From: Deltaproteobacteria bacterium
GTDB taxonomy: Bacteria; UBA10199; JADFYH01
Direction: 5' to 3'
DNA length: 51,340 nt
Assembly: GCA_015233135.1 (NCBI GenBank)
Contig: JADFYH010000021.1
Location: forward strand, 1-51,340
In this document: one piece after another, positions 31,865 to 51,149 of the stretch
Layout of the letters: every line of letters begins with the position of its first letter
Numbering within the stretch: position 1 is the first letter of the stretch
Position numbers and translations under genes: made by a program
Notes under the pieces: model-generated
Told to the model about the DNA's origin: nothing
What the model saw: only the letters and a program-made list of their open reading frames with translations
Database searches by the model: none

Positions 31865-31884
31865 GGCTTAGTCTTGGTCTTGCG

Positions 31885-32034
31885 CGATTTTATAAATATT
31901 TCCCGTTTTTTGTAGGGGCGGTGCCTCTGTGCCCGCCCGCAGATGGATGTGCTTTGAATCCAATTGAAAAGCAAAATCATGGGCGGGCACAGAGGCACCG
32001 CCCCTACAGGATTTTAAATATTATTATAAAATCG
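31885..32034. repeat. 150-bp palindrome before pelA
   Basis: The inner arms 31911-31938 and 31981-32008 are perfect 28-base reverse complements (tgtaggggcggtgcctctgt on the left arm). The outer arms, 31885-31901 and 32016-32034, are also nearly complementary (cgattttataaatattt). The 42-base centre is unpaired. It lies between the response regulator and the pelA ATG at 32041 and differs in sequence from the C/G-run palindromes elsewhere. It is probably a small non-autonomous insertion, with possible effect on pelA expression. Confidence 0.85.
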
Positions 32035-32040
32035 TGTAAA

Positions 32041-34104: not shown

Positions 34105-36874
34105 AATCAGGATTCTGCTATTGTTTGTGGCCTTTGCGGGGCTCGCTTATTTCCTCTATCCGCGCGATCTTTTTTTGGCCCGGCTGTATGAACAGAATGA
34201 ATCTTACGTCCGTGCCGAAAAATATTACAGTCAATATTTGGAAAACCACCCCGCCAATAAGAATATCGCTCTCAAACTTCTTTCGCTTTACGAGCGCATA
34301 GGTACGCCTGAAAAAGCCAAGCCCTACTTGGAGCGGCTGATTGCGATTCGCTATAAAGATTGGGATTTAGCGCAAGTCTATTTGAATTATCTGGATGAAC
34401 AAAATTTGAGAGAAGAGGCTTTTCAATCACGTTTAAAAATAGCGCGAGAGTTTAAGGAAGATAAACAGATTCCTAAACGAAAAATCGAGACACTGCTTGA
34501 AGACGCCCTGCAATATGCGCTCTGGGAACAAAAGACGGACGAGGCTTATAGCATTTTGGGAGAGCTTGTTCAAATAGGTTCCAAGCCCGAAGATTACCTC
34601 AGTCTGCTTTTACAACTAGATCAGGGTTTGAAAAAAACCGGGGCTTTAATCGCCCGGCTTGAAAAAGGGATAGCACAAGATCCAAACAACGAAAATTTAC
34701 AGGAAGATCTCATTCAAATTTATCGAGTGATTGGAGAAGAGGAAAAAGCCTGGACTTTGACGGAGACCCTGCTGCAAAAAAAACCGAAGGCCTTGAACGG
34801 GTTGAAACTGGCCTATCATCTGGCAGAAAAAAGACAAAATTCGGAAAAGCAAATGGAGTTGGCCCAAAGGATAGAGGCGCTTCCTGATCTGAGTGAAGAG
34901 GATAAAAAAGATTTTGGACATATTCTGGCCTCGCTTTTTCTACAAGCGGGAAAGTTGGAACAGGCGCTGATTTATCTCAACCAGCTTTTGCAGAGTTATC
35001 CTCAAGATCAAAGTTTGTGGAAAGATAAAATTGCCCTTCTTTCAAAGCAAAAAAAATGGGATCTCTTTTTCCCCTTCATTGAAGAATATCAAAAACATTT
35101 TCCGGAGGATGCTGAAGTTCAGCCACTTTTATTTCAGGTTTATCTTTATGAGCTCAAGGACTCTCAGAAGCTCGATTTTTATCTTGGCTTTTTAAGCGCC
35201 CATCCCGATTTAAAGCGAGCACAAGAGCTGGCCTATTTTTATCAGAATACAAACCCAGATCTTTTTGAAAAAGCACTTTTAGGATTGGAGAAAATTTTTC
35301 CGAAAAATACCTTGTGGCTGGAGCTTCGCTATCAGAAGGCCTTGCAGGAGAAGAAAGAAACCCTGGCTTTGGAAGTATTACTCAAAATTGAAAGTAAGCG
35401 CCCTTTGAGGGCTGAGGAGCTTGAGGCGATGGCAAGTCTTTATTACGACCTTGGAAACCACGCGCAGAGCCTAAACACCTTCGAAAAACTGGCGCAGCTT
35501 CGACCGACTGCTGCGACCTATAAAAAAGTGGGGCTTGAATTTTACTATGTCCATCAACTGACAAAAGCCAAAGACTATCTGCAAAAGGCCTTCTTGAAAG
35601 CGCCTCAAGATGCCAGTCTGGCTTATTATTTGTCTGAAATCAGTCTAGAACAGAAGAATAAAAAAGAATTTCTCAGTTATGCCCAAAAAAGTAAGGGGCT
35701 TTTTGAAAAACAAAAAAATAAGACGCCCGAAGAACAGAAGCAACAATGGACCTTACAACTGCGTGTCGACCTGGAAACTAAAAACTTCAAAAAGGCCTAT
35801 GTAGCATTGAAGAGCGATCGCGAAAAAAATCCGTCTGGTTTTCTGTATAAAAAAGATCTGGCCTACGTGGCCTTCACTTTAAAAGATTACCAAGAGGCCG
35901 CAGTGTTATTGAAAGAGCTTGATCCCAAACATCAGGATCCTGAACTGAAAGATTTGCATCGCGGTTTGCAAGAGGCCTTTTCTCCCAAGCTCTCCACTTA
36001 TTTTGAACTCACTCATTTGGGGGATGCCGTCCTTTATAGCGGGCATTTACAGCATCGTCAGCCTTTGAGCGCCTCGTTTTCCCTTTTGTCTCAATTGCAA
36101 GTCGGTCACTATCATATTGCTAGTTCCAATTTGAGTGGAGAGTTTAGCAGCCTCTCCACGGCCCTGGAGAAACGTTTCTTTCCCTACAAGCTCCAGACCG
36201 GTTTAGAGTTGGGCCTAAGCGAAGCACGCACTGTTGTTTCGCCCTGGTTAGAATTTGATTTTGAGCCTCATCCCTCTTACGGGCTGAGTTTTTTTTATCA
36301 AAATCATAAACTCAAAACGGATTTACCGGTTTCCATTATAGAGGGGAATCTGCAGGATGAGTGGAAGATCCGTCAGCAAGGAAATGTAAAAGACAAATTG
36401 CTTTGGAGTCTGGAGCTTGAAGCAAATCGACAAGTTTTGAAGACGGGTGAAAAGAGTGGAGGTTATGAAGTGATCCCCTCCTTACAATGGGTGTTTTTTC
36501 AAAAACCTTTTTTAAGTTTGGGGTATCAATATCAATGGGCCGAACAGAAAGGGGCGGATTTTCTACTCAAAGTTCCCTTGATAGAGCGTCTCAATATGCA
36601 TACTCTCAATTTAAACTACTCCCAAAGCTGGGGCGATCAATTAAAAGTGGACGCCAATTTTTTTATAGGGGAAGATTTTAGCCGGCATCTACACGCCTTT
36701 GCGGGTGATCTTTGGGGTGTACAAACTCAAGTGCTGTATGCTCCCACTCATGCACTCGATCTATTTGCCCGCTATCAATATGCGCAAGAGGCAAATCAGG
36801 CGAATGTGGGGCATTCTCATCAGGCACAAATAGGATTAACTTTCTACTGGGGTTTCTATGGCAAGCGAAGGTAA
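34076..36874 (+). CDS. pelB: PelB-like TPR scaffold and outer-membrane beta-barrel
   Basis: A protein of 932 residues from the ATG at 34076 (a TTG two codons earlier is also possible). The N-terminal membrane helix (IRILLLFVAFAGLAYFLYP) is followed by many TPR-like repeats (for example YYSQYLENHPANKNIALKLL and LNTFEKLAQLRPTAATYKKV). The last ~290 residues alternate polar/hydrophobic with aromatic ends (LGYQYQWAEQKG, LFARYQYAQEA, QIGLTFYWGF), typical of an outer-membrane barrel. PelB exports the polymer and its TPRs hold PelA. The end overlaps the next gene by 17 bases, adding YGKRR after the terminal aromatic strand. Confidence 0.87.
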   Translation: MSVSYPRLSKIRILLLFVAFAGLAYFLYPRDLFLARLYEQNESYVRAEKYYSQYLENHPANKNIALKLLSLYERIGTPEKAKPYLERLIAIRYKDWDLAQVYLNYLDEQNLREEAFQSRLKIAREFKEDKQIPKRKIETLLEDALQYALWEQKTDEAYSILGELVQIGSKPEDYLSLLLQLDQGLKKTGALIARLEKGIAQDPNNENLQEDLIQIYRVIGEEEKAWTLTETLLQKKPKALNGLKLAYHLAEKRQNSEKQMELAQRIEALPDLSEEDKKDFGHILASLFLQAGKLEQALIYLNQLLQSYPQDQSLWKDKIALLSKQKKWDLFFPFIEEYQKHFPEDAEVQPLLFQVYLYELKDSQKLDFYLGFLSAHPDLKRAQELAYFYQNTNPDLFEKALLGLEKIFPKNTLWLELRYQKALQEKKETLALEVLLKIESKRPLRAEELEAMASLYYDLGNHAQSLNTFEKLAQLRPTAATYKKVGLEFYYVHQLTKAKDYLQKAFLKAPQDASLAYYLSEISLEQKNKKEFLSYAQKSKGLFEKQKNKTPEEQKQQWTLQLRVDLETKNFKKAYVALKSDREKNPSGFLYKKDLAYVAFTLKDYQEAAVLLKELDPKHQDPELKDLHRGLQEAFSPKLSTYFELTHLGDAVLYSGHLQHRQPLSASFSLLSQLQVGHYHIASSNLSGEFSSLSTALEKRFFPYKLQTGLELGLSEARTVVSPWLEFDFEPHPSYGLSFFYQNHKLKTDLPVSIIEGNLQDEWKIRQQGNVKDKLLWSLELEANRQVLKTGEKSGGYEVIPSLQWVFFQKPFLSLGYQYQWAEQKGADFLLKVPLIERLNMHTLNLNYSQSWGDQLKVDANFFIGEDFSRHLHAFAGDLWGVQTQVLYAPTHALDLFARYQYAQEANQANVGHSHQAQIGLTFYWGFYGKRR

Positions 36875-37232
36875 AAAAATTTTAATTATAGATGATGAAC
36901 CCGATTTTACCGAGTTGGCAGCCACCATGTTGGGCTTCCACGGTTTCCAGATGACTGCGGTGAATGATCCCTTGAGGGTAGAGAATACCATCGACCAGCA
37001 TCCATTTGACTTGATTGTGACGGATCTCATGATGCCGGGCCTGGATGGTTTTAAACTTATTAAAAAAATTCGATCCCGGGTCTCTTATCAGCAAACTCCC
37101 TTGATTGTGTTGACGGCAAAAATAATAAGCGATGAAGAACGAAAATTTTTATTAAATCATCAGGTTCAAGTCGTCTCAAAACCTTTTCATCCTCATCAAT
37201 TGGTAGAGCAGATTCGGAAGTTGTTAGTGTAG
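36858..37232 (+). CDS. Second stand-alone response regulator receiver
   Basis: 124 residues, one receiver domain: IIDDEPD pocket, D56 in LIVTDLMMPGLDGF, Thr in IVLTAK and Lys in VVSKPFHPHQ. No output domain. It is embedded between pelB and pelD, where Pseudomonas has pelC. A role in signal transfer to the inner-membrane Pel complex is plausible given the kinase at 29625. Confidence 0.92.
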   Translation: MASEGKKILIIDDEPDFTELAATMLGFHGFQMTAVNDPLRVENTIDQHPFDLIVTDLMMPGLDGFKLIKKIRSRVSYQQTPLIVLTAKIISDEERKFLLNHQVQVVSKPFHPHQLVEQIRKLLV

Positions 37233-37241
37233 TTTATTCAT

Positions 37242-38615
37242 ATGATTTTTTTTAAAAAACACCCCTATCTCTACGAAATCCCCTTGGCCTTTATCCTCCT
37301 CTTGTGGGCCGCACAAATTTTTTATCCTAATTCTCCTGCTTTTAATGGGGTTGAGCCTCATCCTTTTTGGATCGTCCTTCTACTTTTTGCGCTTCGTTAT
37401 GGTCTCAATGCAGGTATCTTAAGTGCCCTCCTCGCCGCAGGTCTTTATATTACTTATTCCTGGTTCTATTATGAACGCTATCTTTTAGAAGATTTTCAAT
37501 TTTATATTTTACCAGGATTATTTCTGCTTGTGGGGGGGGCTTTAGGTTTGGTGGGGCAAAAATTTAAGGGACAGGTGTCAAATTTGGAGCAAGAAAAAGA
37601 GCAGCTTCAAGACTTACAGAAGAATTTGAAAGCTGAAATTGAAACTCAAAAAGAAATGAATCTGCAGTTAGAAAAAAAAATTGTCACTAAAAGTTCTACC
37701 TTGATTACCTTGTACGAAGGTGCGCGACGTTTTGATAATTTAAATCTGGAAGAACTTTATCCTGCTATTCTAGACTTCATCTTGAAAACTCTGGAGGCTT
37801 CTCAAGGCCTGATCTATATAAACGAGCAGCAAAGTTGGAAGCTGAAGAGCTCCATGGGCTTTACAGAGCCCCCTCTTCAGGCAGAAGTGTTGAGTTTTCT
37901 GGACTTAGTACTTTGCCAAAAACGCAGCCTTAGCTTGCGCGAGCTCTTGCAGCAAAATTCTGCCGCATCTAAGCTCTCTGCCTCTAAAATGCCTATCTTG
38001 ATGGGCCCCTTACAAAAGGGAGAAGAGGGAGAAGTGCTGGGCGTTTTTTTAATCTATGAACTTCCTTTTCAAAATTTAAACTCTGCCACGCTGAATCTTT
38101 TTAGTTTCTTACTCTTATGGGCTTCACGCGCTTTGGGTCGAACGCTTCATTTTGAGGCGCATAAAAAAATGGAAATATTCGATCAAAATCTACAAGTGTT
38201 TTCCGAGAATTATTTTGAATCGCGGCTGGCAGAGGAATTTGAACGGGCAAGAACCTACTATTTGCCTTTATCCCTGGGGCAGATTGAGATCTCTCTCGAG
38301 GCCCTGACGGCTCTCCAAAGAGATCTTTTTTTGAAAGGAATTGTTCAGATCTTAAAGGATACATTGAGACCCATGGATGTTGTGGCTTATTTTCCAAACA
38401 ATAAAATTCAATTTGCTTTTTTGCTGATCACCACGTCGGCCACACAAGCTGAAAATTTTAAAGAGAGAATATTTCAAAGTTTTAAATTTTTTTTAGAAGC
38501 GTGGAAAAAAACTCAGGCGGATTTGCATGTGGGCTTGGCCCTGACGCATTATGCCCCGCAGCTGAAAAGTCTAGAGGAATGGCGGGAGGGCTTGCGGTTT
38601 AAAAATGTTGGGTGA
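37242..38615 (+). CDS. pelD: PelD-like c-di-GMP receptor
   Basis: A protein of 457 residues. Order: about four membrane helices (to about 105; LYEIPLAFILLLWAAQIFYP, LFALRYGLNAGILSALLAAG and others), a coiled coil (LEQEKEQLQDLQKNLKAEIE), a GAF domain (about 155-290) and a degenerate GGDEF domain. RPMD (R376-D379) sits five residues before the position of the GGDEF signature, which reads PNNKI. R-x-x-D is the c-di-GMP inhibitory-site motif, and PelD binds c-di-GMP by such a site without making it. It gates Pel synthesis. Confidence 0.87.
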   Translation: MIFFKKHPYLYEIPLAFILLLWAAQIFYPNSPAFNGVEPHPFWIVLLLFALRYGLNAGILSALLAAGLYITYSWFYYERYLLEDFQFYILPGLFLLVGGALGLVGQKFKGQVSNLEQEKEQLQDLQKNLKAEIETQKEMNLQLEKKIVTKSSTLITLYEGARRFDNLNLEELYPAILDFILKTLEASQGLIYINEQQSWKLKSSMGFTEPPLQAEVLSFLDLVLCQKRSLSLRELLQQNSAASKLSASKMPILMGPLQKGEEGEVLGVFLIYELPFQNLNSATLNLFSFLLLWASRALGRTLHFEAHKKMEIFDQNLQVFSENYFESRLAEEFERARTYYLPLSLGQIEISLEALTALQRDLFLKGIVQILKDTLRPMDVVAYFPNNKIQFAFLLITTSATQAENFKERIFQSFKFFLEAWKKTQADLHVGLALTHYAPQLKSLEEWREGLRFKNVG

Positions 38616-38654
38616 CAGACTTCCTCCCCCCAGGAGAGGGGGATAAAATACTCT

Positions 38655-39689
38655 ATGACACAAACCGAAAAAAAACGCTGGGGTCTCTTTCTGTTTGTCT
38701 GGTTGCTATCCGGTTTATTGCAACTTTTCTTTTTTCGACTTCTTTTTTTTAAAGCGTACAGTGCTCCAATATCTTTCGCCCTGTTTTCCACTCACCTTGG
38801 ATCGTCGCTGGTTTATTTTATTTTGACCGAAGAGAAAAATAAACAGCGAGGGCGCGTTTGGCCCATTCAATTTTTTTTTCTTAGTTTTTTTATGCCGGGG
38901 ATAAGCTTCATATTTTTACCCTTTCTTTGGGCTCAGCAATTGGAAGGCAATTTTGTAATGGACGACAAAGCGGAAATAGAAAGTCTGGAATTCAGCAAAG
39001 TGTTCTATGAAAAAGTATTAAGCCCTCAAGAAAAAATATTCGAAGCCTTGGACATTGAACCTTATGCGGATATTTTGGCGGGGCAGGATATTGAGCTAAA
39101 AAGAGGGGCCATTGAACGAATGGTGGAGTTGAAAAATAAAGAATCGATTCAACTTTTGGAGAAATATCGTTCGGACAATTCGAGTGAACTGCGTTTTTAT
39201 GTTTTGAGCGCCCTGCATCGAATCCGACAGGAATTCGAGGAAGAATTAGCTGCTGCAAAAAAAGAAACGCAGGGAAATTTTTACAAAATTTCTGCCCGCA
39301 TTTATTTGGCTAAGGTCTATCTGCAGTACGTTCAATCGGGTTTGTTAGACCGGAGCATGCAGAATAGTTATTTAGAGGAGGCAGCGCATCACCTTCGTGA
39401 GAGTTTGAATTCAGGGCATGCCCAAGCTCACGCCTTTGAAGTGTTGCTGGAGCTTTTCATTCTTCAAAAAAATTATGCCTCGGCCCTGCAACTATTAGAA
39501 GAAGCCTATCCTAAAGGATGGTGTAAGACCGATTTCTATTTTCAAAAGAAAACCGAACTTTTTTATGTTTCGAAGGATTATTTAGGTTTAAAACAATTTG
39601 TTGCGAATTTCCCTTTGGCTCAGCTTCAATCGACGAAGTCTACCCAACTCTATTACGGCTGGGGAGGGGAGGCTTATGCAAACACCTAA
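38655..39689 (+). CDS. pelE: PelE-like membrane TPR protein
   Basis: A protein of 344 residues. Two or three hydrophobic segments at the start (FLFVWLLSGLLQLFFFRLLF, and FFFLSFFMPGISFIFLPFLW) are followed by a soluble helical part with TPR-like repeats (ARIYLAKVYLQYVQSGLL, YASALQLLEEAYPKGW). Size, topology and position after pelD fit PelE, a partner in the inner-membrane complex. It overlaps the HEAT gene by 14 bases. A partial C-rich palindrome lies just before it (38620-38643). Confidence 0.75.
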   Translation: MTQTEKKRWGLFLFVWLLSGLLQLFFFRLLFFKAYSAPISFALFSTHLGSSLVYFILTEEKNKQRGRVWPIQFFFLSFFMPGISFIFLPFLWAQQLEGNFVMDDKAEIESLEFSKVFYEKVLSPQEKIFEALDIEPYADILAGQDIELKRGAIERMVELKNKESIQLLEKYRSDNSSELRFYVLSALHRIRQEFEEELAAAKKETQGNFYKISARIYLAKVYLQYVQSGLLDRSMQNSYLEEAAHHLRESLNSGHAQAHAFEVLLELFILQKNYASALQLLEEAYPKGWCKTDFYFQKKTELFYVSKDYLGLKQFVANFPLAQLQSTKSTQLYYGWGGEAYANT

Positions 39690-41643
39690 TTCGATTACTT
39701 CACCTTTACAAAAGATTCGGGAAGCTCTGGAAGGAAGTAGCGAAGATGCCAGATACCAGGCCTGGATGACCCTTTATCGGGCAGAGCAGGCGGAATATGG
39801 GCAAGAATTAGATCGCATTCTTCAGGAGAAGGATCCCATCTTAAAAATAAAGTTGGCTCGTTTTTTGGCACAAATTCCAGAAAGCAAAGCCGTACAGCTT
39901 TTGGCAGTGCTGTTACTCTCAGAAAATTTGCTGGTTTTTGAGGCAGCCAAAAAGGCGTTTGAGAAGAATGCGTTAGAAAAGAAGGCAAAATTTCTGTTGT
40001 TTCTTTTACAAGATCCCTCTTTGGAAAAACGCCTCTTCGCCATTGAAAAATTGGCGCAGGCAAATATTTATGATGCCTTACCCCATTTTATCCAGCAGAT
40101 TCAAAAGGCAGAAGAAATAGAAAAAATCGCTCTACTCAAGGCCTTTCGCTATTTAGCCGAACCTAAGGTATTTCCTCTTTTAAGAAAGATGTTTGAGGAT
40201 AAAAACACCAAGCTGCGTCTCGAAGTCTTGTTTGCCCTCATTAAACTTTATGAAGAAGGACATTGGAGAAGTGAAAGAATTATTTTGCGAGCGCTGCAGG
40301 ATGAAAGCGCAGAATTGCGTCGGGTGGCCTTGTGGGGTTTAAGACAGCGTCCAAAAAGACGGCATTGGAAATGCTTTGAGTTTTGTTTCGTGCATGATCA
40401 AGAGCTGTACGTGCGGGAAGAAGCTTTGAAGGGCCTTTGTTGCTATTCGCAAGAAAAAACTATTCGATTATTATTGCAGACAATAGGCCAAGAAAAAAAT
40501 CCCGGTTTTGCCCTAAAAATAGAGGCACGACTGTTGGCTCTGCCCCAGGAAAAATTGAAAAAAGTTTTTTGGAAATTGGCAAATAAAAAAATATTTTTTG
40601 AGAATACCCGGGTACTTTTTTATTTGGCACTGTTACAAAAAAAATCTCAAAAAGTTTTCAAATTTCTTATTAAAAAAATAGCTGCAGGTGCGGCGCCCAA
40701 ACAACAGGTACTGCTTCTGGAAGCCTTGGTAGAAATCAGGCTACCAGAAGCCATAAAGCTATTTGAAGCTTATTTAAACGAGAGTCCTCTTGAAACCTAT
40801 TATGCTTTGCTAGGGATTATCCGACTAATGAAAGAGGGGATTCCCGTTCCACTCGAGAGCTATTTTGATAAAAATCTTCTTTCCCCCTTCTCTCAAGAAG
40901 TGTTGCTGAAGGAACTCCTCAAGATGAAACAAAAACCGCTTTCGGAAAAAAAACTGATGGCCTTGCTTTCTTACTCAGAAGCTAACGCTCAGCTTTCCAT
41001 CACTTATCTGGCTGCCCTCAATTTGATAAAGATATCCAGTGAAGCAGGAGTGGAACGAATGCTCCGCAATTGTGCTCTGCAAAAAGATTTCCCCTTGCTC
41101 GAGTCGTTTCAAAAAATGATTACCTGTTTTTTTAAAGAAAATCCTGAGTTTGTTTTCAGGCTGCTAGAAAAAAATCATGAGAAGGAAGTCACTGCACTCC
41201 TTTTTAAAATTTTGTCTGAACTCGATTGGAGTGCTGAGCGTCTTGAAAAAGTTTTTCCTGCTTTGTTTTTGGCGTTTAGAAGTGGCTGTTCTTCATACCT
41301 TCAGAAAGATTTTTTTTATTTTTTGCAAGGGCTTCTTTATAATCAAAAGTCGGGGTTTCAGAGTTTGATGAGCACGCTTCAACTTCAGGAGCAGCACGGT
41401 TTTCTCGATTCGCTGAACACGGCTCCCTCGGATTTATTGTTGCACATAAAAAGTGAAGAGTTTTCTGAAATATTTTTTTCGGCACCGCCAGAAATTCAAA
41501 ACAAGATGCTGCGTCTCTGTTCTGAAAAAAAACATGCTTCGTTTTATTCCTTTGCTGTATCTTTAATAAGCCGGATTTCGGACTTTGAATCGGAAATACT
41601 TAAAAATATTTTAAGCGACTGTATTGTGGAGCAAACTGTCTAA
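39676..41643 (+). CDS. HEAT-repeat protein in the Pel locus
   Basis: A protein of 655 residues from the ATG at 39676. It has many alpha-helical repeats of about 35-40 residues, of which the clearest are HEAT-like (LRLEVLFALIKLYEEG, RRVALWGLRQRPKRRHW, YVREEALKGLCCYSQEKTIR). No signal peptide or membrane helix, so it is cytoplasmic. It is translated in close coupling with pelE (14-base overlap) and pelF (stop and start share bases). It is not a standard Pel gene. A cytoplasmic scaffold for PelD/PelE/PelF is inferred. Confidence 0.75.
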   Translation: MQTPNSITSPLQKIREALEGSSEDARYQAWMTLYRAEQAEYGQELDRILQEKDPILKIKLARFLAQIPESKAVQLLAVLLLSENLLVFEAAKKAFEKNALEKKAKFLLFLLQDPSLEKRLFAIEKLAQANIYDALPHFIQQIQKAEEIEKIALLKAFRYLAEPKVFPLLRKMFEDKNTKLRLEVLFALIKLYEEGHWRSERIILRALQDESAELRRVALWGLRQRPKRRHWKCFEFCFVHDQELYVREEALKGLCCYSQEKTIRLLLQTIGQEKNPGFALKIEARLLALPQEKLKKVFWKLANKKIFFENTRVLFYLALLQKKSQKVFKFLIKKIAAGAAPKQQVLLLEALVEIRLPEAIKLFEAYLNESPLETYYALLGIIRLMKEGIPVPLESYFDKNLLSPFSQEVLLKELLKMKQKPLSEKKLMALLSYSEANAQLSITYLAALNLIKISSEAGVERMLRNCALQKDFPLLESFQKMITCFFKENPEFVFRLLEKNHEKEVTALLFKILSELDWSAERLEKVFPALFLAFRSGCSSYLQKDFFYFLQGLLYNQKSGFQSLMSTLQLQEQHGFLDSLNTAPSDLLLHIKSEEFSEIFFSAPPEIQNKMLRLCSEKKHASFYSFAVSLISRISDFESEILKNILSDCIVEQTV

Positions 41644-43103
41644 TGGATGTTTGTCTTATATTAGAAGGGACCTATCCTTATGTGTCCGGTGGGGTTGCCA
41701 CCTGGGTGCATCAACTCATTACTTCAATGAAGGGGATTAATTTTGGACTTTATTGCATTAGTGCGCATGCGGATCCTACCCGAAAACTGCAGTATGTGCT
41801 TCCTCCCAATGTGGTCTATTTTCAGGAGTTGTTTCTTCACGATTATAATTTGAGAAATATTAGTAAGCGCAAACCTGGCCCAGGAGATTTCAAAAAATTG
41901 AAAGACGTTTTGGAAGAAATAGGAGGAAAGAATTATAAAAATTTCCCTCAGTTGCTTGAGCTTTTTCAGGGAGAAGACGCCTGTTTCCATTCCAAAAATA
42001 TTTTTGCCTCCCAGCAGATTTGGGACCTTTTAATTTCTTACTATGAACGTTTTGCCCCTGAAATTTCCTTCATCGATTTCTTTTGGACCTGGAGAAATAT
42101 CTATCTGCCTGTGCTCGAAATCTTTCAGGCTCCGCTCCCTCGGGCCAAAATCTATCATGCCGTCTCCACCGGCTATGCGGGGTTGCTGGGTGTGGTCGCC
42201 AAATTACTTCAGGGAGAAAAACTGTTTATTACAGAACATGGCATTTACACCCATGAGCGAAAGCTGGAAATAGCTCAGGCCTCCTGGATTTTAGACCAAG
42301 AACAAAAACGCCCTCGTGCCTCACGAGAAATTTCCTTTTTCAAAAAATGGTGGACCGCTTTTTTTCAATTGCTTTCCAGTTTGGCTTACGATTCGGCGGA
42401 TCAGGTTTTCACTCTTTTCGAAGGAAATAAAATCCGGCAAATTCTGGAAGGCTGTGCCCCAGAAAAATTGTGTATTATCCCCAATGGAATTCTCTTAGAA
42501 GAAACTCCCCTTTTAAAATCCAGGGAGAAGAAAGGCCCTTCAATCGGATTGGTGGGAAGGGTAGTGGAAATCAAAGATATTAAAACCTTCTTACGGGCCG
42601 CTGCATTGGTTTTGGAGATGAAACCCGAGACCGAATTTTATGTATTGGGCCCCCTGGAGGAAGAAAAGGAATATGCCGAGGAATGCATGGCTTTATCGGA
42701 AGAATTGGGATTAGATAAAAAAGTTCATTTTACAGGCAAAGTAGAAATGAAAGATTTTTACCCAATTTTGGATGTGCTTGTTTTAACCAGCTTGTCGGAA
42801 TCTCAACCTTATGTCATTCTAGAGGCTTGCTGGATGGGTATTCCTGTGGTGGCAACGGATGTGGGGGCCTGCCGGGAAATGCTGGAGGGTAGCTCGGATT
42901 CCGAGGATAGGAACTTTGGAAAAAGCGGGTTACTTACCCCTGTCTCCAGCCCCCAAAAAACGGCGGAAGCGATTTTGGAACTTTTAGAACATCCCTCACT
43001 ACGACAACAAATGGCGCATTCCGGGCGCGCGCGGGTGAAGAAATTTTACAATCAGGAGGATTTGCTTTCAAAGTATTTAAATTTTTATGAACAGAATTTA
43101 TAA
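41643..43103 (+). CDS. pelF: PelF glycosyltransferase
   Basis: A protein of 486 residues, GT-B fold, family GT4. The N-terminus VCLILEGTYPYVSGGVATWV is the characteristic PelF start. The C-terminal half has IGLVGRVVEIKDIKTFLRAA and the E-x7-E motif ESQPYVILE. PelF is the cytoplasmic glycosyltransferase that builds the Pel polymer from UDP-sugars. The start overlaps the end of the HEAT gene. Confidence 0.94.
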   Translation: MDVCLILEGTYPYVSGGVATWVHQLITSMKGINFGLYCISAHADPTRKLQYVLPPNVVYFQELFLHDYNLRNISKRKPGPGDFKKLKDVLEEIGGKNYKNFPQLLELFQGEDACFHSKNIFASQQIWDLLISYYERFAPEISFIDFFWTWRNIYLPVLEIFQAPLPRAKIYHAVSTGYAGLLGVVAKLLQGEKLFITEHGIYTHERKLEIAQASWILDQEQKRPRASREISFFKKWWTAFFQLLSSLAYDSADQVFTLFEGNKIRQILEGCAPEKLCIIPNGILLEETPLLKSREKKGPSIGLVGRVVEIKDIKTFLRAAALVLEMKPETEFYVLGPLEEEKEYAEECMALSEELGLDKKVHFTGKVEMKDFYPILDVLVLTSLSESQPYVILEACWMGIPVVATDVGACREMLEGSSDSEDRNFGKSGLLTPVSSPQKTAEAILELLEHPSLRQQMAHSGRARVKKFYNQEDLLSKYLNFYEQNL

Positions 43104-43123
43104 CTTCCCTCTCCCTTGAGCAG

Positions 43124-43327
43124 GCATAGGTATCTACACAAATCAGCAAGGTACTAATTTTGTTACTCTTGGTGATCCCTCCCCTTAAGCTAAGGGGAGG
43201 TTAGGAGGGGTTATGAAAGATTTTGCAAATTAGAGAAGCCCAGAATTTTGCAAGATTTTCCATAACTCCCCCAACCCCCTCTTAGCTTAAGAGGGGGAAA
43301 TATCAAAAGATGTGTAGATGCCTATGC
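43124..43327. mobile_element. 204-bp MITE-like hairpin element with 8-bp target duplication
   Basis: The ends are inverted repeats (gcataggtatctacaca at 43124-43140; the reverse complement at 43311-43327 differs by one base). The outside is flanked by TTGAGCAG on both sides (43116-43123 and 43328-43335), an exact 8-bp target duplication. Inside, two long arms around 43172-43222 and 43258-43300 are reverse complements (cttaagctaag with G runs, then gttatg). There is no transposase frame, so it would be moved in trans. Removing it rebuilds a small hairpin (ccctctccc TTGAGCAG gggaaaggg). Confidence 0.85.
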
Positions 43328-43363
43328 TTGAGCAGGGGAAAGGGCTTTTGAGAAAAAACTCCC

Positions 43364-44767
43364 ATGGCAGGCATAGGGTTTCGTTTACAAAAAATTTTAC
43401 AAGGTCGTTCTTATACCGATTTCGCGCGCGCCTATCTTTTTTCAACGGTGATCGCAAGTGGGCCCTCACTTTTGGTCATGCTGAGTTTGGCACTGCTTCG
43501 TTATCGCCTGCAGTCCAGCTTCAATATGGAAGACCAGAAGCTGCTGGTTTCGCTATTTTCGTATCTTTATGCTTTTTCGATGATCGTGGTAGGGCCTTGT
43601 CTCTACGTTGTCACCCGATACCTGGCGGACATGGAATATTTGGGAAAACTGGCGGTGTTTTCTCCCACTTATTTTTCTTTGCTCAAAATTTTATTTTCTG
43701 TGGCCTCCCTTTTAGAATGGGGCTTTACTTATTCTTTATCTATCCCTTTTTCGGCTAAAGTTCTGCTCTGGGTCTTATTTTTATTAATCGTCGGCATTTG
43801 GGTGGCGCTCACTTTCATCAGCATTCTTCGGGGTTATAGCTGGATTGTCTTCGCCTTCTTTTCTGGGGGAGCGGGGGGGCTGTTGCTTTCCATCCCTTTT
43901 ACCCAGTACTGGGGCTGGCAGGGTTTTATCGGCGCCTATACTTTGGGGCAGGGCCTGATCTTCTTCATTTTAACCATTCGCTTGGTAACCGAACTGGGCA
44001 TGCCTTTTCAAAATGATTTTTCATTTTTAAGTTACTTTAAAAAACAACATTATTTGGTTTGGATTTGTACCTTTTATTTTGCGGGAAATTGGGTGGATAA
44101 ATTCGTTTTCTGGGCTTCTCCTCATGCCGAAATTATTCTGGGAAAATTGGCCACTTGTCCTTTATACGATGCCCCCATTTTTTTAGCTTTTCTCACGATC
44201 GTGCCTGCCATGGCCTTTTTTCTTTTGCAGATGGAAAGCACCTTCGCAAAAAATTATCATTTGTACTTCGAATGTATCCGCAGACGCAGTCCACTTCATA
44301 CTATTCTCGGGCAGAAGAGGGCGATGGTCTCCGAGTTGTATGGGCATTTTAAACAATTCATGCTTTTTCAAGGAATCGTCTCCCTGCTTATCGTGTTGAT
44401 GATGGAAGAAGTCTGTAATTATTTTATGATCGAGCCTCATCAGATGGGAATTTTTAGGATTGGTATCTTGGGCGCTTTTTTGCAGATGATGTTTGTGATG
44501 TTGCTGACCCTGCTTTTTTATTTTGATTTTCTTCAAGAGGCATTTTGGATGAGTCTGCTCTACTTTGTCAGTAACGCCCTGTTGACCCTGGCAACTCTGC
44601 AACTAGGCTTAGCTTCTTATGGTTATGGAGTCACAATCTCCTGCCTTATTTCTTCGTTTTTCACTTTCTTGCTTTTGGACAGCCGCCTTAAATATCTGGA
44701 GTATTACACCTTTATGAAGCAGCCTATTTCATTCCCTCCTTTTTCTTATGAGGAAGAGCTTTTTTGA
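43364..44767 (+). CDS. pelG: PelG membrane transporter
   Basis: A protein of 467 residues with about twelve membrane helices. The N-terminus MAGIGFRLQKILQGRSYTDF, with ASGPSLLVMLSLALL, is the hallmark of PelG, a flippase-like (MOP/Wzx-related) inner-membrane component that moves Pel across the membrane with PelD and PelE. It follows pelF after 260 bases holding the mobile element and ends the Pel locus. Confidence 0.93.
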   Translation: MAGIGFRLQKILQGRSYTDFARAYLFSTVIASGPSLLVMLSLALLRYRLQSSFNMEDQKLLVSLFSYLYAFSMIVVGPCLYVVTRYLADMEYLGKLAVFSPTYFSLLKILFSVASLLEWGFTYSLSIPFSAKVLLWVLFLLIVGIWVALTFISILRGYSWIVFAFFSGGAGGLLLSIPFTQYWGWQGFIGAYTLGQGLIFFILTIRLVTELGMPFQNDFSFLSYFKKQHYLVWICTFYFAGNWVDKFVFWASPHAEIILGKLATCPLYDAPIFLAFLTIVPAMAFFLLQMESTFAKNYHLYFECIRRRSPLHTILGQKRAMVSELYGHFKQFMLFQGIVSLLIVLMMEEVCNYFMIEPHQMGIFRIGILGAFLQMMFVMLLTLLFYFDFLQEAFWMSLLYFVSNALLTLATLQLGLASYGYGVTISCLISSFFTFLLLDSRLKYLEYYTFMKQPISFPPFSYEEELF

Positions 44768-44847: not shown

Positions 44848-45627
44848 ATGAAAAAAATATCTTTTTTAATGCTTGTACTGCTGTTGAGTGTCACTGCCTG
44901 TAAACAGAACAAACCGAGTCAAAAGAGTCCCTCTCATGCTTCGCCATTTGATCTTTCTATGACCGAAACAGCTCCGGGGATGGAGGATAATAAATCGGGT
45001 TCAGGGAAGGTGATTGAAACTATGAACTCTGGTGGCTATACCTACGCAAAGATTGATGTTGATGGAACCAAGCTGTGGGTAGCTGGTAAAGAAACAGCTC
45101 TGACTGTGGGTAAAAAGGCAAGCTTTTCGGGAGGCATGCCGATGATGAACTTCCATAGCAAGACACTCAATCGAACCTTTGACGTGATTTACTTTGCATC
45201 TTCTCTTCAGGCTGGGACTGCCACGGCACCCAAATCCACTTCACCTGAATCTGTACCTGATCAAACTCAAGCCCCTCACACAGGGGCCCCGATTCCAGTG
45301 ACAGAGCATGTCGTAGGAATCAAGAAGGCCGAAGGGGGTAAGACTATCGCCGAGATTTTTGCTCAAAAGGCTAATCTCTCGGGTAAAGAGCTTGTCGTCC
45401 GTGGAAAAGTGGTCAAGTACAACGGAGGAATCATGGACCGCAACTGGCTGCACATTCAGGATGGATCAGGTACGTTGGGGAGCAACGACCTGACAGTCAC
45501 CAGCACGGATACAGCGGCTGTTGGCAATACCGTTCTGGTCCGCGGAATACTTGCTACTGAACAAGATTTTGGTGGGGGATATAAATACAGCATCGTGCTG
45601 GAGAAGGCCAAAATCACTGTAGAATAG
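44848..45627 (+). CDS. Lipoprotein with NrfJ-like and OB-fold-like domains
   Basis: A protein of 259 residues. Lipoprotein signal MKKISFLMLVLLLSVTAC with Cys18. A first domain (GKVIETMNSGGYTYAKIDVD, WVAGKETALTVGKKASFSGG, MMNFHSKTLNRTFDVIYF) resembles NrfJ-related proteins found near multihaem cytochromes. After a Pro/Thr linker, a second domain (ELVVRGKVVKYNGGIMDRNW, LHIQDGSG, GNTVLVRGILATEQDFGGGY) looks like an OB fold. It probably sits at the periplasmic face of a membrane. Its position just before the cytochrome gene suggests a helper role, but transcription may be separate. Confidence 0.75.
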   Translation: MKKISFLMLVLLLSVTACKQNKPSQKSPSHASPFDLSMTETAPGMEDNKSGSGKVIETMNSGGYTYAKIDVDGTKLWVAGKETALTVGKKASFSGGMPMMNFHSKTLNRTFDVIYFASSLQAGTATAPKSTSPESVPDQTQAPHTGAPIPVTEHVVGIKKAEGGKTIAEIFAQKANLSGKELVVRGKVVKYNGGIMDRNWLHIQDGSGTLGSNDLTVTSTDTAAVGNTVLVRGILATEQDFGGGYKYSIVLEKAKITVE

Positions 45628-45646
45628 AAATCTCAGAAACATCACG

Positions 45647-45693
45647 AGAATGAATTCCCTCTTGCCTTGTTATAGGGGGGTTCATTCTTGTTC
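45647..45693 (+). terminator. Possible terminator after the lipoprotein gene
   Basis: agaatgaa (45647-45654) pairs with ttcattct (45681-45688), with an inner ccct/aggg pairing, followed by tgttc. The T-run is poor, so termination may be weak. Confidence 0.4.
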
Positions 45694-45815
45694 AAAATAA
45701 TTTACTCGATAACCGCATAAAATCCTTATCAAATCTTAAAACACAAAATTATATATTCATTTTTTACGCAACATTCCTTGCTAGCATACGATAACCATAG
45801 TGTCGTTATTTGTGC

Positions 45816-45845
45816 TTGTTGTGATCCGCATCATACCCTTATAAT
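45816..45845 (+). promoter_or_regulatory. Promoter of the multihaem cytochrome gene
   Basis: TTGTTG (45816-45821), an 18-base spacer and a perfect TATAAT (45840-45845). Transcription would start near 45852, about 50 bases before the ATG at 45903. The rest of 45694-45815 is AT-rich with no gene. Confidence 0.5.
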
Positions 45846-45902
45846 GTCGGGTGGGGCTAGTTGCGGTTTAACTTTTTTGTTCACACTTTTATTAAGCCTT
45901 TT

Positions 45903-48900
45903 ATGAGACTTTTTATACGACCTTACCCATTGAACTTCATCCTCTGTTTTTTTCTCATTTTATTTGCAGGATGTTCCAATACAAATCCACCGGATCCGGT
46001 AGGGCCAAGTACTGGAATTGCAGTTTCACCCAGTGAGAGTCCCACTTCTCAGATCGTTCCTCATACGGAGCCCTGGATTCCTTTACACGGAACCTGGGTC
46101 AATCAAAACGGTATTCAGGTTTGCCTAAACTGCCACAAAATCTCTTCAACCGATGTCGAAAGAGCTCCTACCTGCTTTTCTTGTCATCCCTTCCCCCACA
46201 CGGAGGGGTGGGTTCAAAAAGAAAATCATGGGGCCTATGCCCTGGCACAGGGACAAAACGTTTGCACTCTATGTCACGGCGATGACTTCAAGGGAGGAAT
46301 TTCAGAAATCTCTTGCAACACCTGTCATACAATTTTTCCACACACGGCCTCTTGGGCAGACCCTGGTGAACATGGCAATGTTGCGAAGGGAGATGGGAAG
46401 AACCTCTGTAAAGGTTGTCATGGCGATGATTTTAACACAATGCTTTCGGGGAAATCCTGTAAATCTTGCCACAACAATGTATATCCTCACCCAACGGATT
46501 GGAGAAATAAGGAAAATCATGGGCAATGGGTTGCAACCAATGGAAGTGCAAGCTGCGCTACACAATGTCATGGGACGGATCTGAGTGGTGGGCTTTCTGG
46601 AGTGGCCTGTAGGTCTTGTCATAATGGAATCTATCCCCATGCAGCTGGGTGGCAGGATAATCATGGTGCAACGGCTAATCGTTTAGGAAAAGCTGCCTGC
46701 CAAGACTGCCATGGCAGTGACTTTAAGCAGATGCTCGCTGGAAAAAATTGTTTTTCGTGCCATGCCGATTATCCACATCCGGAGAGTACCACCTGGATCC
46801 CTTTCCAGGGAGGTCACGGAGAGAGGGTCAAAACCAATGGATCTACGGATGCCTGCAAACTTTGCCATGGAACTGATCTGAAGACAGTAAAGCCGGACGG
46901 CAGGAACTGTTTCAGCTGTCATGCTTCCTATCCCCATCAGATAGTCTCTTCCACCTGGAATACCTTTGATGGACATGCTCGTTATGTTCTGGAAACGGCT
47001 CATGGTTCCAAAGAAGAATGTAAAAACTGCCATGGGACTGATCTTCGGGGGGGTAATCGAGGAAACCCCACCTGCTTTAATTCGGCCTGTCACGCCTCCT
47101 ACCCACACCTGGACGGCTGGCTAAGACCAGTGGGGCAAACCCAGGAGCATGCTGTCTATGCTCATTCTAATGGCACTACCAGCTGTGCCACAGCCCATTG
47201 TCATGGAGTGGGGCTTGTTTCGGTTGCTGGCGTTACCTACGGATTGAGTTGCACCGGTTGCCATCAGAGCTACCCCCATATCCCCGATTGGGCCTTGGGG
47301 ACCAATCATGGCCGACAGGCCTTGGTAGATACAAACATCACTGGTTGTAAGGCCTGTCATGGCGATGCCTTGGACCGGAGAACCAGCACAACCTTAGTCG
47401 GTCACGGTGCCTGTGCGGAATGTCATCCAAGCTATACCAGACACCGGAGTGCGCTCCTGGTAGCCGCTACCGATAACCATTGGGCTAGAGGAACAGAACA
47501 TGGGACTTATGTTCTAGACCCCTCCCGGGATCGAGTGACCACACTCACTGAGTGTCAGAAATGCCATGGTTCAGATTATCGGGGTGGACTCTCGGGACAA
47601 AGCTGTAAAGACTCAAGCTGTCATGAGACCTATCCTCATCTTGCGGGATGGGCCCCTAGCAGCGATGGTCATGCCTCAGATCACGGCCCTCAAGCGGCTG
47701 CTAATTTTAATGCCTGTCGAGCCTGTCATGGAGCCGATTTGAATATTGCCCCCGTAACTGGGCATGGCTCTTGTTCTGCTGCCTCCTGTCATCCCAGCTA
47801 TGCTCAACACCGTTCAGATGGAATCTTTCGGGAAGCTTGGCGTACCTTTGACGGGCATGGGGCTTTCCTCATGGGGCCACTAGGCTCTACTCCTCCACCG
47901 ATCAGTACTCGTTACAATGAATGCAAAACCTGTCACGGAAGTGATTTGAGCAGAAATATCAACGATCGAAATTGCAATTCCTGTCATCAAAACTATCCTC
48001 ATCCAGCAGGCTGGGCAGACCCAAGCAATCATGGCCATTTTGTGAGAGAAAATGGTTCCACCTCCTGTGCTCAAGCTCAATGTCATGGCACCGGCCTTAT
48101 TCCCACCACAGAAACTCGTGGGACGAATTGTGCCAGCTCAGGTTGCCATACCGATTTTCCGCATCTGGCCGGCTGGGGCCCGTCAACTGATGGAAGCACT
48201 TCACGTCATGGAACCGTTGCAATTTCTGGAACCGAGATTGAGGCTTGCAAGGCCTGCCATGGGGCGGATCTCTCCAATGAAATGGTCGCTAGTGCCGACC
48301 CTCGGGGAAGAGGATCTTGTGTAGATTGCCATGCCGTTTATTCCCAACACGGAAGGGTGCGGGGTGTTTCCACCTGGACCGGGCCCGGAGCTGGATCTCA
48401 TGGCCCCTACATTCGCGGGGCAAGTGGGGAATTCACCAAGGCTCAAAGAAATGCCAAACTCCTCGAATGTAAAACCTGTCATGGCGCAAACTTTGATGCC
48501 CCTATTCCCAGCGGAAACTGTAGGGGATGTCATGTCAGCTATCCTCACCAGGACAGCACGGCAGGGCGATGGATTGCGGGTGCTGTTCATGGAGCAGCCG
48601 CCATTTCAGACCTCAATAATTGCAAGACCTGTCATGGTGCCGGCTTGAACAATGTCATGATTACAGACACTGCAGCGGCAAGTACAGGATCCTGTGTCAG
48701 CTGTCACTCCAGCTACGCCCAACATCGCCGATCTACAGAAACTCCTACAACTCCTTCACTATGGCCTACTACAGGGCATGGGCAGTATGTTTTGGGTCCC
48801 GTCGGGGCAAGAAATAGCGAAGCTGTAAAGGCCACTAAGCTGACCGAATGCCAGACTTGTCACGGCGCCGATTATTCAGGTGGCATTTCGGGAACAGCTT

Positions 48901-51149
48901 GCAGGTCGTGTCATGAGAGTTATCCACAAAGACACATTCCCGGAGCTACCTGGGGGACCTATGCAGGGCACGGAGCCTCTCTCATGGGCGCTCCTGGAAG
49001 TACCCCTGCGCCAGTCGGTACGCGTTATAACGACTGTAAACTTTGCCACGGAAATGATTTGAGAACGGATGTGGGTAGCAGTGGAACCAGCGGAACGACT
49101 TGCTATAGCTGTCATCAAAACTATCCTCACCTCGATCTTGATGCCTGGAGAACTGGTCAGCATGGCAGTGTTGTTCGTAGCAGCGGAACACGCAGTTGTG
49201 CGGAGGCAGAATGTCACGGAACTGGTCTTATTCCCACCACGGGAGTAACCCGTGGACCAAGCTGCAGCCAGACTGGATGTCACAGCAATTTTCCACATAC
49301 AACGGGCTGGTATCCGGTCACAGGGTCGAGCACGATTTCAACACACGGAACCACCGCCATCTCCGATATCGATTCTTGCAAACGCTGCCACGGTGCCGAT
49401 CTGGGGAATGTCCTCAGTAGCACAGGCACCGGTGGGCATTCTTGCAACAATTGCCACAGCACCTACTCCAGACACGCTCGGGTGGCTGGTTCAACTACTC
49501 CTCTCTGGAGAGATGCTCATGGGGCTTATATCAACGGGGCAAGTCGAGAGTTCACGAGGGCTCAGAGGGATACCAATCTCCTTGAATGCAAAACCTGTCA
49601 TGGAGAACACTTCGATGCCATTCCAAGCGCAAACTGCAGCAGGAGCTGCCATTCCAGCTATCCTCACCAGGATGGTACCGCTGGGCGATGGATTACGGGT
49701 GCCGCTCATGGCGCAGCGGCTATTTCAGATATCAATAATTGCAAGACCTGCCATGGTGCGGGGTTGAACAATGTCATGATTAGCGATCCTACGGCCACAA
49801 GCACGGGGGCTTGCACTAGTTGTCATGCCAGCTATGCCCGGCATCCACGCGCTACAGGCAGTTCCTCAACCTGGTCTAGTACAGAACATGGACAATATAT
49901 TTTGGGGCCAGTGGGGGCAAGATATTCAGCCGCGGACAGGGCTGCCAAGTTGACCGAATGCCAGGCCTGCCATGGAAGCGATTATTCGGGAGGTCTCGCT
50001 GGGGTAGCCTGCCGAACTTGCCATGAAAGTTATCCACAAAAGCATGCACAGAGCGGTTGGGGAACCTATAATGACAGCGGAAATGGACATGGGAACCATG
50101 TCTTGGTTAATTTAGACAATGTGAAAGCCTCTTGTAAACTATGCCATGGAACTGATCTGCGTGGAGGAAATTCCGGGGTTGATTGCAGCAACAGCGGATG
50201 TCACGCCAATTACCCTCATGGTGACCCCGCCAGCGCTAGAAGTCTCAGCGATGAACCCATTACCAGTGCGTGGATTTCTACAGGACATGGCCCTGCTTCA
50301 CTGGTAGGCGCCTCTACTTTTAGTGGGCCTACTGCCAGAGTAAATAATTGCGGCAGTGCGAATTGCCATGGGCCAACGTTGTCTGGAAGAGTGGTCACTG
50401 CAGCGGATGGCACGAGGATAGAAGTGTATACCTGTACACTCTGTCACACAGAATTCCCTCATGAAACCAACCCCGCTTGGTTGAGACCAGGACGAACGTC
50501 CCCAGGAGAACCCAAAAACCATGCCCTGAAAATGATTGAAGAATCGAGGGTTGGAGGCAATTGCTACGGATGCCATGGAAGCAGTTATGAGCGAAGACTT
50601 GGTGGAATCGCCTGCACCGATTGCCATACCAGCGGTGTCACACACACGGCTTCCTGGTGGGTTTCCGGGCCGACCACTCCTTTCCCTGCCTCTCCAGAAC
50701 ACGGGAACTATTTACATTCTGTTTCCTTCACCTCTGCAACTTCAGCGACCCAAAATTGTAAAGATTGCCATGGTCATGTCTCCCCCATCAATGATGTTGC
50801 CGTTGATTTTTTACCAACTGATATCAGAAGCAGTTTGGAAACCCGCTCTGATTGTTATCGTTGCCACTGGGCCTATCCCCACAAGAGTTTTTTTGCTCGC
50901 AGCCCCTTGAGTAGAGCCTACGATTGGTCTTTGGGGCATGCCTTCTACGTAACCGATAGTCCTCTTTTTGTCGATGAAACGGGCGCGCGTCCCAGTCCTA
51001 CAGATCCTACCGACTTTTGGACAGTTATGTGGGCTTCTAATTTCTCTAACGCCCGACGAGTAACCTGTGAACAGGGAGGGGGCTGTCATTCCTCCAGAAG
51101 AACAAGCACCACCATGTGCTCGACGGCTTGTCATCCTGTTGGGCGATAA
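45903..51149 (+). CDS. Giant multihaem c-type cytochrome lipoprotein, about 56 haem motifs
   Basis: A protein of 1,748 residues from the ATG at 45903 (a TTG at 45861 is also in frame). It has a lipoprotein signal (FILCFFLILFAGC). I count 42 CxxCH motifs plus 14 spaced variants: three Cx3CH, ten Cx4CH (such as CFNSACH and CSQTGCH) and one Cx5CH. Haems occur in pairs, typically CKxCHGxDL then CxxCHxxYPH, every 40-50 residues, with a conserved YPHxxxW. Two consecutive blocks of about 370 residues (47838-48950 and 48951-50057) repeat with 12 motifs each. Such proteins carry electrons across or outside the envelope. There is no barrel or porin gene in the window, and no membrane helix beyond the signal. 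Nothing else is seen after the stop (51150-51340). Confidence 0.93.
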   Translation: MRLFIRPYPLNFILCFFLILFAGCSNTNPPDPVGPSTGIAVSPSESPTSQIVPHTEPWIPLHGTWVNQNGIQVCLNCHKISSTDVERAPTCFSCHPFPHTEGWVQKENHGAYALAQGQNVCTLCHGDDFKGGISEISCNTCHTIFPHTASWADPGEHGNVAKGDGKNLCKGCHGDDFNTMLSGKSCKSCHNNVYPHPTDWRNKENHGQWVATNGSASCATQCHGTDLSGGLSGVACRSCHNGIYPHAAGWQDNHGATANRLGKAACQDCHGSDFKQMLAGKNCFSCHADYPHPESTTWIPFQGGHGERVKTNGSTDACKLCHGTDLKTVKPDGRNCFSCHASYPHQIVSSTWNTFDGHARYVLETAHGSKEECKNCHGTDLRGGNRGNPTCFNSACHASYPHLDGWLRPVGQTQEHAVYAHSNGTTSCATAHCHGVGLVSVAGVTYGLSCTGCHQSYPHIPDWALGTNHGRQALVDTNITGCKACHGDALDRRTSTTLVGHGACAECHPSYTRHRSALLVAATDNHWARGTEHGTYVLDPSRDRVTTLTECQKCHGSDYRGGLSGQSCKDSSCHETYPHLAGWAPSSDGHASDHGPQAAANFNACRACHGADLNIAPVTGHGSCSAASCHPSYAQHRSDGIFREAWRTFDGHGAFLMGPLGSTPPPISTRYNECKTCHGSDLSRNINDRNCNSCHQNYPHPAGWADPSNHGHFVRENGSTSCAQAQCHGTGLIPTTETRGTNCASSGCHTDFPHLAGWGPSTDGSTSRHGTVAISGTEIEACKACHGADLSNEMVASADPRGRGSCVDCHAVYSQHGRVRGVSTWTGPGAGSHGPYIRGASGEFTKAQRNAKLLECKTCHGANFDAPIPSGNCRGCHVSYPHQDSTAGRWIAGAVHGAAAISDLNNCKTCHGAGLNNVMITDTAAASTGSCVSCHSSYAQHRRSTETPTTPSLWPTTGHGQYVLGPVGARNSEAVKATKLTECQTCHGADYSGGISGTACRSCHESYPQRHIPGATWGTYAGHGASLMGAPGSTPAPVGTRYNDCKLCHGNDLRTDVGSSGTSGTTCYSCHQNYPHLDLDAWRTGQHGSVVRSSGTRSCAEAECHGTGLIPTTGVTRGPSCSQTGCHSNFPHTTGWYPVTGSSTISTHGTTAISDIDSCKRCHGADLGNVLSSTGTGGHSCNNCHSTYSRHARVAGSTTPLWRDAHGAYINGASREFTRAQRDTNLLECKTCHGEHFDAIPSANCSRSCHSSYPHQDGTAGRWITGAAHGAAAISDINNCKTCHGAGLNNVMISDPTATSTGACTSCHASYARHPRATGSSSTWSSTEHGQYILGPVGARYSAADRAAKLTECQACHGSDYSGGLAGVACRTCHESYPQKHAQSGWGTYNDSGNGHGNHVLVNLDNVKASCKLCHGTDLRGGNSGVDCSNSGCHANYPHGDPASARSLSDEPITSAWISTGHGPASLVGASTFSGPTARVNNCGSANCHGPTLSGRVVTAADGTRIEVYTCTLCHTEFPHETNPAWLRPGRTSPGEPKNHALKMIEESRVGGNCYGCHGSSYERRLGGIACTDCHTSGVTHTASWWVSGPTTPFPASPEHGNYLHSVSFTSATSATQNCKDCHGHVSPINDVAVDFLPTDIRSSLETRSDCYRCHWAYPHKSFFARSPLSRAYDWSLGHAFYVTDSPLFVDETGARPSPTDPTDFWTVMWASNFSNARRVTCEQGGGCHSSRRTSTTMCSTACHPVGR
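47838..50057 (+). repeat. Two 1.1-kb super-repeats inside the cytochrome gene
   Basis: Copy 1 47838-48950 and copy 2 48951-50057, each opening with W-x-T(F/Y)xGHGAxLMG and closing with CRxCHESYPQ(R/K)H. Both contain GTGLIPTT, GAxxEFTxAQR, GAAAISD(L/I)NNCKTCHGAG and LNNVMI. DNA identity is high in places (48616-48662 against 49735-49780), so the duplication is fairly recent. A partial third copy begins at 50058. Confidence 0.85.

What the first reader, a model, noticed from the sequence alone, without database searches (positions are those of the whole stretch)
45903..51149. About 56 haem motifs in one lipoprotein
This is among the highest haem counts for a single polypeptide, by reading the sequence. 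A lipid-anchored chain of about 1,750 residues could form a long electron wire from the cell surface. The gene has its own promoter, and a lipoprotein gene beside it.
Basis: partly seen in the sequence, partly recalled or inferred. Interest (0 to 1): 0.8.

Follow-up and report, generated by a model that had tools for sequence, protein, structure and literature searches.

The report
Giant 56-haem surface electron-wire lipoprotein
An uncultured Deltaproteobacteria-like microbe carries a gene for one very long lipid-anchored protein with places for 56 haem groups, most likely a surface wire passing electrons into or out of the cell; proteins with even more haems are already known, so it is an unusually large, undescribed member of a known kind.

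Summary
The frame at 45903-51149 (+) encodes 1,748 residues with 42 CXXCH, 3 CX3CH, 10 CX4CH and 1 CX5CH motifs, 56 in all; every cysteine after the lipobox is in a motif. The motifs form 28 two-haem modules, each preceded by a linker with at least two further histidines, enough to give every haem two histidine ligands. Six modules (12 haems) arose by tandem duplication.

The claim to be among the highest counts is only partly right: 63, 85, 86 and 113 are published.

The protein belongs to an unnamed family found in 24 of 45 genomes of its class (other members 15-42 motifs). The family co-occurs perfectly with one of two outer-membrane barrel families (24/24 against 0/21 in genomes lacking it). 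In many relatives it sits beside barrel and periplasmic cytochrome genes. Here the only such cassette is on another contig: a predicted 22-strand barrel, a 9-haem cytochrome and an 8-haem lipoprotein, plus a NrfD-type quinol module elsewhere.

Best reading: the extracellular wire of a porin-cytochrome conduit, resembling but apparently unrelated to MtrCAB and PCC3. Surface location, haem packing, partners and electron direction are untested.

The parts
45903..51149 (+). gene of the 56-haem-motif lipoprotein cytochrome, 1,748 aa (mature 1,725 aa, 182 kDa apo)
45903..45974 (+). lipoprotein signal peptide with lipobox LFAGC; lipid-modified Cys24 predicted
   Evidence: sequence; the Cys is invariant in 20 aligned relatives
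46050..46625 (+). N-terminal region (residues 50-241) conserved across the family, modules 1-4; distal and proximal His and Cys invariant or nearly so
   Evidence: AlphaFold2 pLDDT about 60-87, mostly 75-87 from residue 105 on
47793..48914 (+). modules 12-17 (12 haem motifs), first copy of a tandem duplication
   Evidence: 64% protein and 71% DNA identity to modules 18-23
48915..50024 (+). modules 18-23 (12 haem motifs), second copy of the tandem duplication
51066..51134 (+). C-terminal haem pair (CX5CH and CX3CH), which aligns by eye with the C-terminal TCGGG..CH...C...CH element of relatives
45628..45902 (+). 275-nt intergenic gap; no sigma-70 consensus promoter found
44848..45627 (+). neighbouring lipoprotein gene (259 aa); not conserved beside the family elsewhere, probably unrelated

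Best explanation
The gene encodes an outer-surface multihaem c-type cytochrome. It is exported, lipid-anchored at Cys24 and loaded with 56 covalent, mostly bis-His haems in 28 two-haem modules, forming an extended chain of haems. It acts as the extracellular wire or terminal of a porin-cytochrome conduit. Proposed route: menaquinol, then the inner-membrane NrfD/FeS/4-haem module, then periplasmic mono-haem cytochrome(s), then a 9-haem cytochrome in or at a 22-strand outer-membrane barrel, then the 8-haem PKD-domain lipoprotein and/or this 56-haem lipoprotein, then a mineral, partner cell or redox compound outside; or the reverse for electron uptake. Shown: gene, motifs, histidine supply, lipobox, tandem duplication, co-occurrence with barrels, presence of all parts in the genome, predicted barrel fold. 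Inferred: haem attachment, surface location, physical partnership with the barrel, electron direction and substrate.
For: 56 motifs use every mature Cys except the lipobox Cys. All 28 inter-module linkers hold at least 2 non-motif His, while 23 of 28 intra-module linkers hold none. These His are among the invariant or nearly invariant columns of the family alignment. Residues per haem 30.8, inside the 22-39 reported for PCC3 wires. The family is present in 24 of 45 genomes of the class; all 24 have a type I or type II barrel and none of the 21 others has either (Fisher 2.6e-13, not corrected for relatedness; gained or lost together within families f12, f13, f19, f21). In many relatives the cytochrome gene adjoins barrel + 7-haem + 2-haem genes, and in G025 barrel + 9-haem genes plus a NrfD/FeS/4-haem module. 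The own genome has barrel + 9-haem + 8-haem lipoprotein on contig C44 and NrfD/FeS/4-haem on C1. The barrel is predicted with 22 strands, pTM 0.69, and matches outer-membrane porins, Foldseek E down to 3e-10. Haem-attachment (Ccm-type) genes are present.
Against: In this genome the cytochrome gene is not beside a barrel; it follows a Pel polysaccharide operon and a non-conserved lipoprotein, at a contig end. The type II conduit already has its own lipoprotein partner (8-haem PKD protein), so the 56-haem protein could be redundant or serve another role. No expression data. AlphaFold2 gave only moderate confidence beyond residue about 290 and no match to a solved cytochrome; haem-haem distances could not be measured.
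Confidence: 0.72

Rival explanations
1. Electron capacitor: the lipoprotein sits at the periplasmic face of the outer (or inner) membrane and stores up to 56 electrons, buffering respiration rather than passing electrons outside.
For: Large haem number in a small genome with few other multihaem proteins in the pattern and family searches; the genome has ACIII, cbb3-type and NO-reductase gene sets, so electron supply may fluctuate; lipobox alone does not prove surface exposure. Storage is also suggested for PCC3 cytochromes.
Against: Perfect co-occurrence with outer-membrane barrels and adjacency to barrel genes in relatives point to the outer surface.
Confidence: 0.15
2. Same conduit, but run for electron uptake (for example from Fe(II) or a partner cell) instead of metal or partner reduction.
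For: PCC3, the nearest described analogue, is proposed for Fe(II) oxidation; the genome has oxygen-reducing and NO-reducing terminal enzymes that could accept the electrons.
Against: The partner module is NrfD/FeS/4-haem, which resembles quinol-oxidising modules (own knowledge) but can run either way; no Cyc2 or Mto search was made. Direction cannot be read from sequence.
Confidence: 0.3
3. A multihaem enzyme (nitrite, sulfite or organohalide type reductase) with a catalytic haem.
For: Weak profile matches to multihaem nitrite reductases and hydroxylamine oxidoreductase in the PDB search, as expected for any CXXCH-dense protein.
Against: No atypical active-site motif such as CXXCK; His supply fits bis-His coordination throughout; no family match beyond generic cytochrome c3/c7/MtrC-type domains.
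Confidence: 0.04
4. Pseudogene or assembly artefact produced by repeat collapse or chimera.
For: Repeat-rich gene near a contig end.
Against: 5.2 kb open frame with a strict module pattern; repeats are diverged (70-80% DNA identity), not identical copies; both ends match relatives.
Confidence: 0.03

Closest known systems
PCC3 porin-cytochrome system (Sideroxydans, Leptothrix, other Proteobacteria; PMC5566968, PMC10734462)
   Same: Porin + periplasmic multihaem cytochrome + extracellular multihaem cytochrome with very many haems (median 34, up to 63 and 85), repeated units, low residues-per-haem ratio (22-39; here 30.8).
   Different: PCC3 porins have up to 42 strands and the periplasmic cytochrome about 21 haems, with a 5-helix b-type inner-membrane protein; here the barrel is predicted with 22 strands, the periplasmic cytochrome has 9 (or 7) haems and the inner-membrane partner is NrfD/FeS/4-haem. 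Sequence homology to PCC3 proteins was not tested.
MtrCAB / MtoAB (Shewanella and others)
   Same: Logic: barrel, periplasmic multihaem cytochrome, extracellular lipoprotein cytochrome; Pfam finds an MtrC/MtrF domain II/IV-like stretch in the protein.
   Different: MtrC and MtrA have 10 haems each and MtrB 26 strands (PMC12133095); the barrel and 9-haem profiles found no significant match in a PDB sequence search.
OmbB-OmaB-OmcB and ExtABCD etc. of Geobacter
   Same: Clusters of barrel, periplasmic cytochrome and outer-surface lipoprotein cytochrome in a delta-proteobacterial setting.
   Different: Haem numbers and gene content differ; homology not tested here.
Giant cytochromes: 86-motif protein of Desulfuromonas acetexigens; 86- and 113-motif ANME/Methanoperedens proteins
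   Same: Single polypeptides with more than 50 haem motifs, proposed for extracellular electron transfer.
   Different: They are larger; the archaeal ones carry S-layer domains and are not lipoproteins of an outer membrane. Sequence relation to the D. acetexigens protein not tested.
OmcS, OmcE, OmcZ cytochrome filaments
   Same: Haem chains for long-range conduction.
   Different: Those are polymers of 4-8-haem subunits; this is one long chain. No PDB sequence match and no fold match for the N-terminal model.

Membership tests
multihaem c-type cytochrome | multiple CXXCH-type haem-attachment motifs in an exported protein | tested here: met
   56 motifs, signal peptide and lipobox; Pfam Cytochrom_c3_2 2e-31, Cytochrome_C7 7e-26
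multihaem c-type cytochrome | haems actually attached; host has a cytochrome c maturation system | tested here: inconclusive
   Three Cytochrom_C_asm proteins in the genome, two beside a CcmE/CcmG/CcmH-like set on C1; attachment itself needs the bench
outer-membrane lipoprotein cytochrome | lipobox with signal peptide | tested here: met
   LFAGC24; Cys column invariant in relatives
outer-membrane lipoprotein cytochrome | exposed on the cell surface | not testable with these tools
   inferred from barrel co-occurrence only
porin-cytochrome conduit (general) | outer-membrane barrel gene with a periplasmic multihaem cytochrome gene | tested here: met
   C44: barrel 22 strands overlapping a 9-haem gene; not adjacent to the 56-haem gene in this genome
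porin-cytochrome conduit (general) | extracellular cytochrome encoded in the same cluster | tested here: inconclusive
   met in many relatives; in this genome the cluster holds an 8-haem lipoprotein and the 56-haem gene is on another contig
MtrCAB | sequence homology to MtrA/MtrB | tested here: not met
   no PDB sequence match for the barrel or 9-haem profiles, no Pfam match for the barrel
PCC3 | porin, periplasmic cytochrome of about 21 haems, extracellular giant cytochrome and 5-helix inner-membrane protein in one cluster | tested here: not met
   9-haem or 7-haem partner and NrfD-type module instead; homology to PCC3 sequences not tested
Geobacter OmbB-OmaB-OmcB / Ext conduits | homology to Omb/Oma/Omc or Ext proteins | not tested
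   no reference sequences were compared

The most novel reading that the evidence does not exclude
This family, with its two barrel types and 7- or 9-haem partners, is a separate porin-cytochrome lineage, independent of Mtr, Omc/Ext and PCC3, spread through an uncultivated bacterial class, in which the extracellular wire lengthens by tandem duplication of two-haem modules (about 15 to 56 haems) so that wire length is an evolvable trait.
Probability: 0.4. Interest if true: 0.6.

Novelty: new variant of a known kind. Interest (0 to 1): 0.45.

Why it matters
It gives a natural length series (about 15 to 56 haem motifs) of one homologous surface cytochrome in related genomes, all tied to outer-membrane barrels. 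That would let one test how the length of an electron wire changes extracellular electron transfer. It also points to extracellular electron exchange in an uncultivated, small-genome bacterial class, read from MAGs filed as unclassified Deltaproteobacteria.

Tried and rejected
Record-holder claim: rejected from the literature. Homology to a solved cytochrome: phmmer none; a profile of the N-terminal region hits OmcA at 2e-8 and other multihaem proteins weakly, probably driven by CXXCH spacing. Neighbouring lipoprotein 44848-45627 as a partner: no homologue in fetched neighbourhoods, no PDB match, no Pfam match above its cut-off. Type I barrel and 2-haem lipoprotein in the own genome: absent. 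BLASTP self-comparison printed no hits; replaced by module alignment and DNA repeats.

Full report
What is there. The ORF at 45903-51149 (+) encodes 1,748 residues. It holds 42 CXXCH, 3 CX3CH and 10 CX4CH motifs and one CX5CH, 56 in all. All 112 cysteines after the lipobox pair into exactly these 56 motifs; the two others are C24 in the lipobox LFAGC and C15 in the signal peptide. Shuffling the protein gives 1.6 such motifs on average and never more than 9. The mature apo-protein is 182 kDa, 30.8 residues per motif.

Anatomy. The motifs fall into 28 pairs. Within a pair the spacing is mostly 12-19 residues and usually without histidine; between pairs there is always a linker with at least two non-motif histidines, typically a 'PH' just after one pair and an 'HG' before the next. 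That supplies about 56 distal ligands for 56 haems, as expected for bis-His electron-transfer haems. These histidines, with the cysteines, are among the invariant or nearly invariant columns of the family alignment. Modules 12-17 (residues 631-1004) and 18-23 (1005-1374) are 64% identical in protein and about 71% in DNA, a tandem duplication of a 12-haem block; without it the protein would have 44 motifs, near the 42 of its best-scoring relative.

Family. Among 60 related genomes searched, 24 have homologues, all in the same class (45 genomes searched including the own one). Members read in full have 15-42 motifs, many with a recognisable lipobox, several with an extra C-terminal Ig-like stretch. 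Named relatives are MAGs filed as unclassified Deltaproteobacteria, for example RIFCSPHIGHO2_01_FULL_43_49 and RIFCSPLOWO2_02_FULL_50_16. I suspect the GTDB group UBA10199, from memory only.

Company it keeps. In many relatives the cytochrome gene is followed by a barrel-like protein of about 420 aa (type I), a 7-haem periplasmic cytochrome and a 2-haem lipoprotein. In G025 it is followed by a different barrel (type II) and a 9-haem cytochrome, beside NrfD, FeS and 4-haem genes. Searching the class with both barrels: all 24 cytochrome-bearing genomes have type I (20) or type II (9) or both; none of the other 21 has either. The contrast also occurs inside families f12, f13, f19 and f21, so it is not only shared ancestry. 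The type II cassette is well conserved; in G003 the inner-membrane module, barrel, 9-haem and 8-haem genes are contiguous.

The own genome. It lacks type I but has a type II cassette on contig C44: two mono-haem cytochromes, a 480-aa barrel, an overlapping 9-haem gene and a 1,117-aa PKD-domain lipoprotein with 8 CXXCH. NrfD, FeS and 4-haem genes lie on C1 next to Ccm-type genes. The barrel is predicted with 22 strands (pTM 0.69) and resembles MOMP and AlgE outer-membrane porins. Alternative complex III, a cbb3-type oxidase and a NO reductase are also encoded (assignments by reading the genes).

Mechanism. The best-supported reading is a porin-cytochrome conduit whose extracellular wire is the 56-haem lipoprotein. 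Shown: the sequence features, the genomic association and the predicted barrel. Inferred: haem loading, surface exposure, physical partnership and electron direction. The main weakness is that in this genome the gene is not beside the barrel; it follows a Pel-type operon (31861-44767) and ends 191 nt before the contig end.

What is known. Giant cytochromes with 63 and 85, 86 and 113 motifs are published, so 56 is high but no record. PCC3 is the nearest described logic, but its partner proteins differ; homology to PCC3 or Geobacter conduits was not tested. MtrAB homology was tested by profile against the PDB and not found.

Verdict. Real, well-organised and the largest read member of an unnamed conduit family; a new variant of a known kind. 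Interest 0.45.

Noticed in passing
31861-44767: Pel-type exopolysaccharide operon: PelF (NF038011, 5.5e-142) and PelG (PF16933, 3.5e-104), with TPR/barrel, GAF and polysaccharide-deacetylase-like proteins upstream that look like PelB, PelD and PelA.
   Followed up: partly
28517-29491 (-): Deoxyhypusine synthase family protein (PF01916, 5.7e-40) in a bacterium.
   Followed up: no
18542-27061 (+): 2,839-aa protein with no Pfam match.
   Followed up: no
429-4532 (+): 1,367-aa protein with two C-terminal RNA polymerase alpha-CTD-like domains on a long unrelated N-terminal part.
   Followed up: no
L063 8142-10736 (-): In relative G005 one 864-aa frame joins an NrfD-like protein to the type II outer-membrane barrel; a real fusion would be odd, a lost stop or assembly error is likelier.
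   Followed up: no
L033, L038, L039, L040, L042, L045, L031: Several family members carry about 250 extra C-terminal residues resembling SbsA/Big_5 Ig-like domains after the last haem motif.
   Followed up: no
L049 8747-12100 (+): 1,117-aa PKD-domain lipoprotein with 8 CXXCH beside the barrel, conserved with a C-terminal 'QTDFP.ATLR' signature in relatives.
   Followed up: partly
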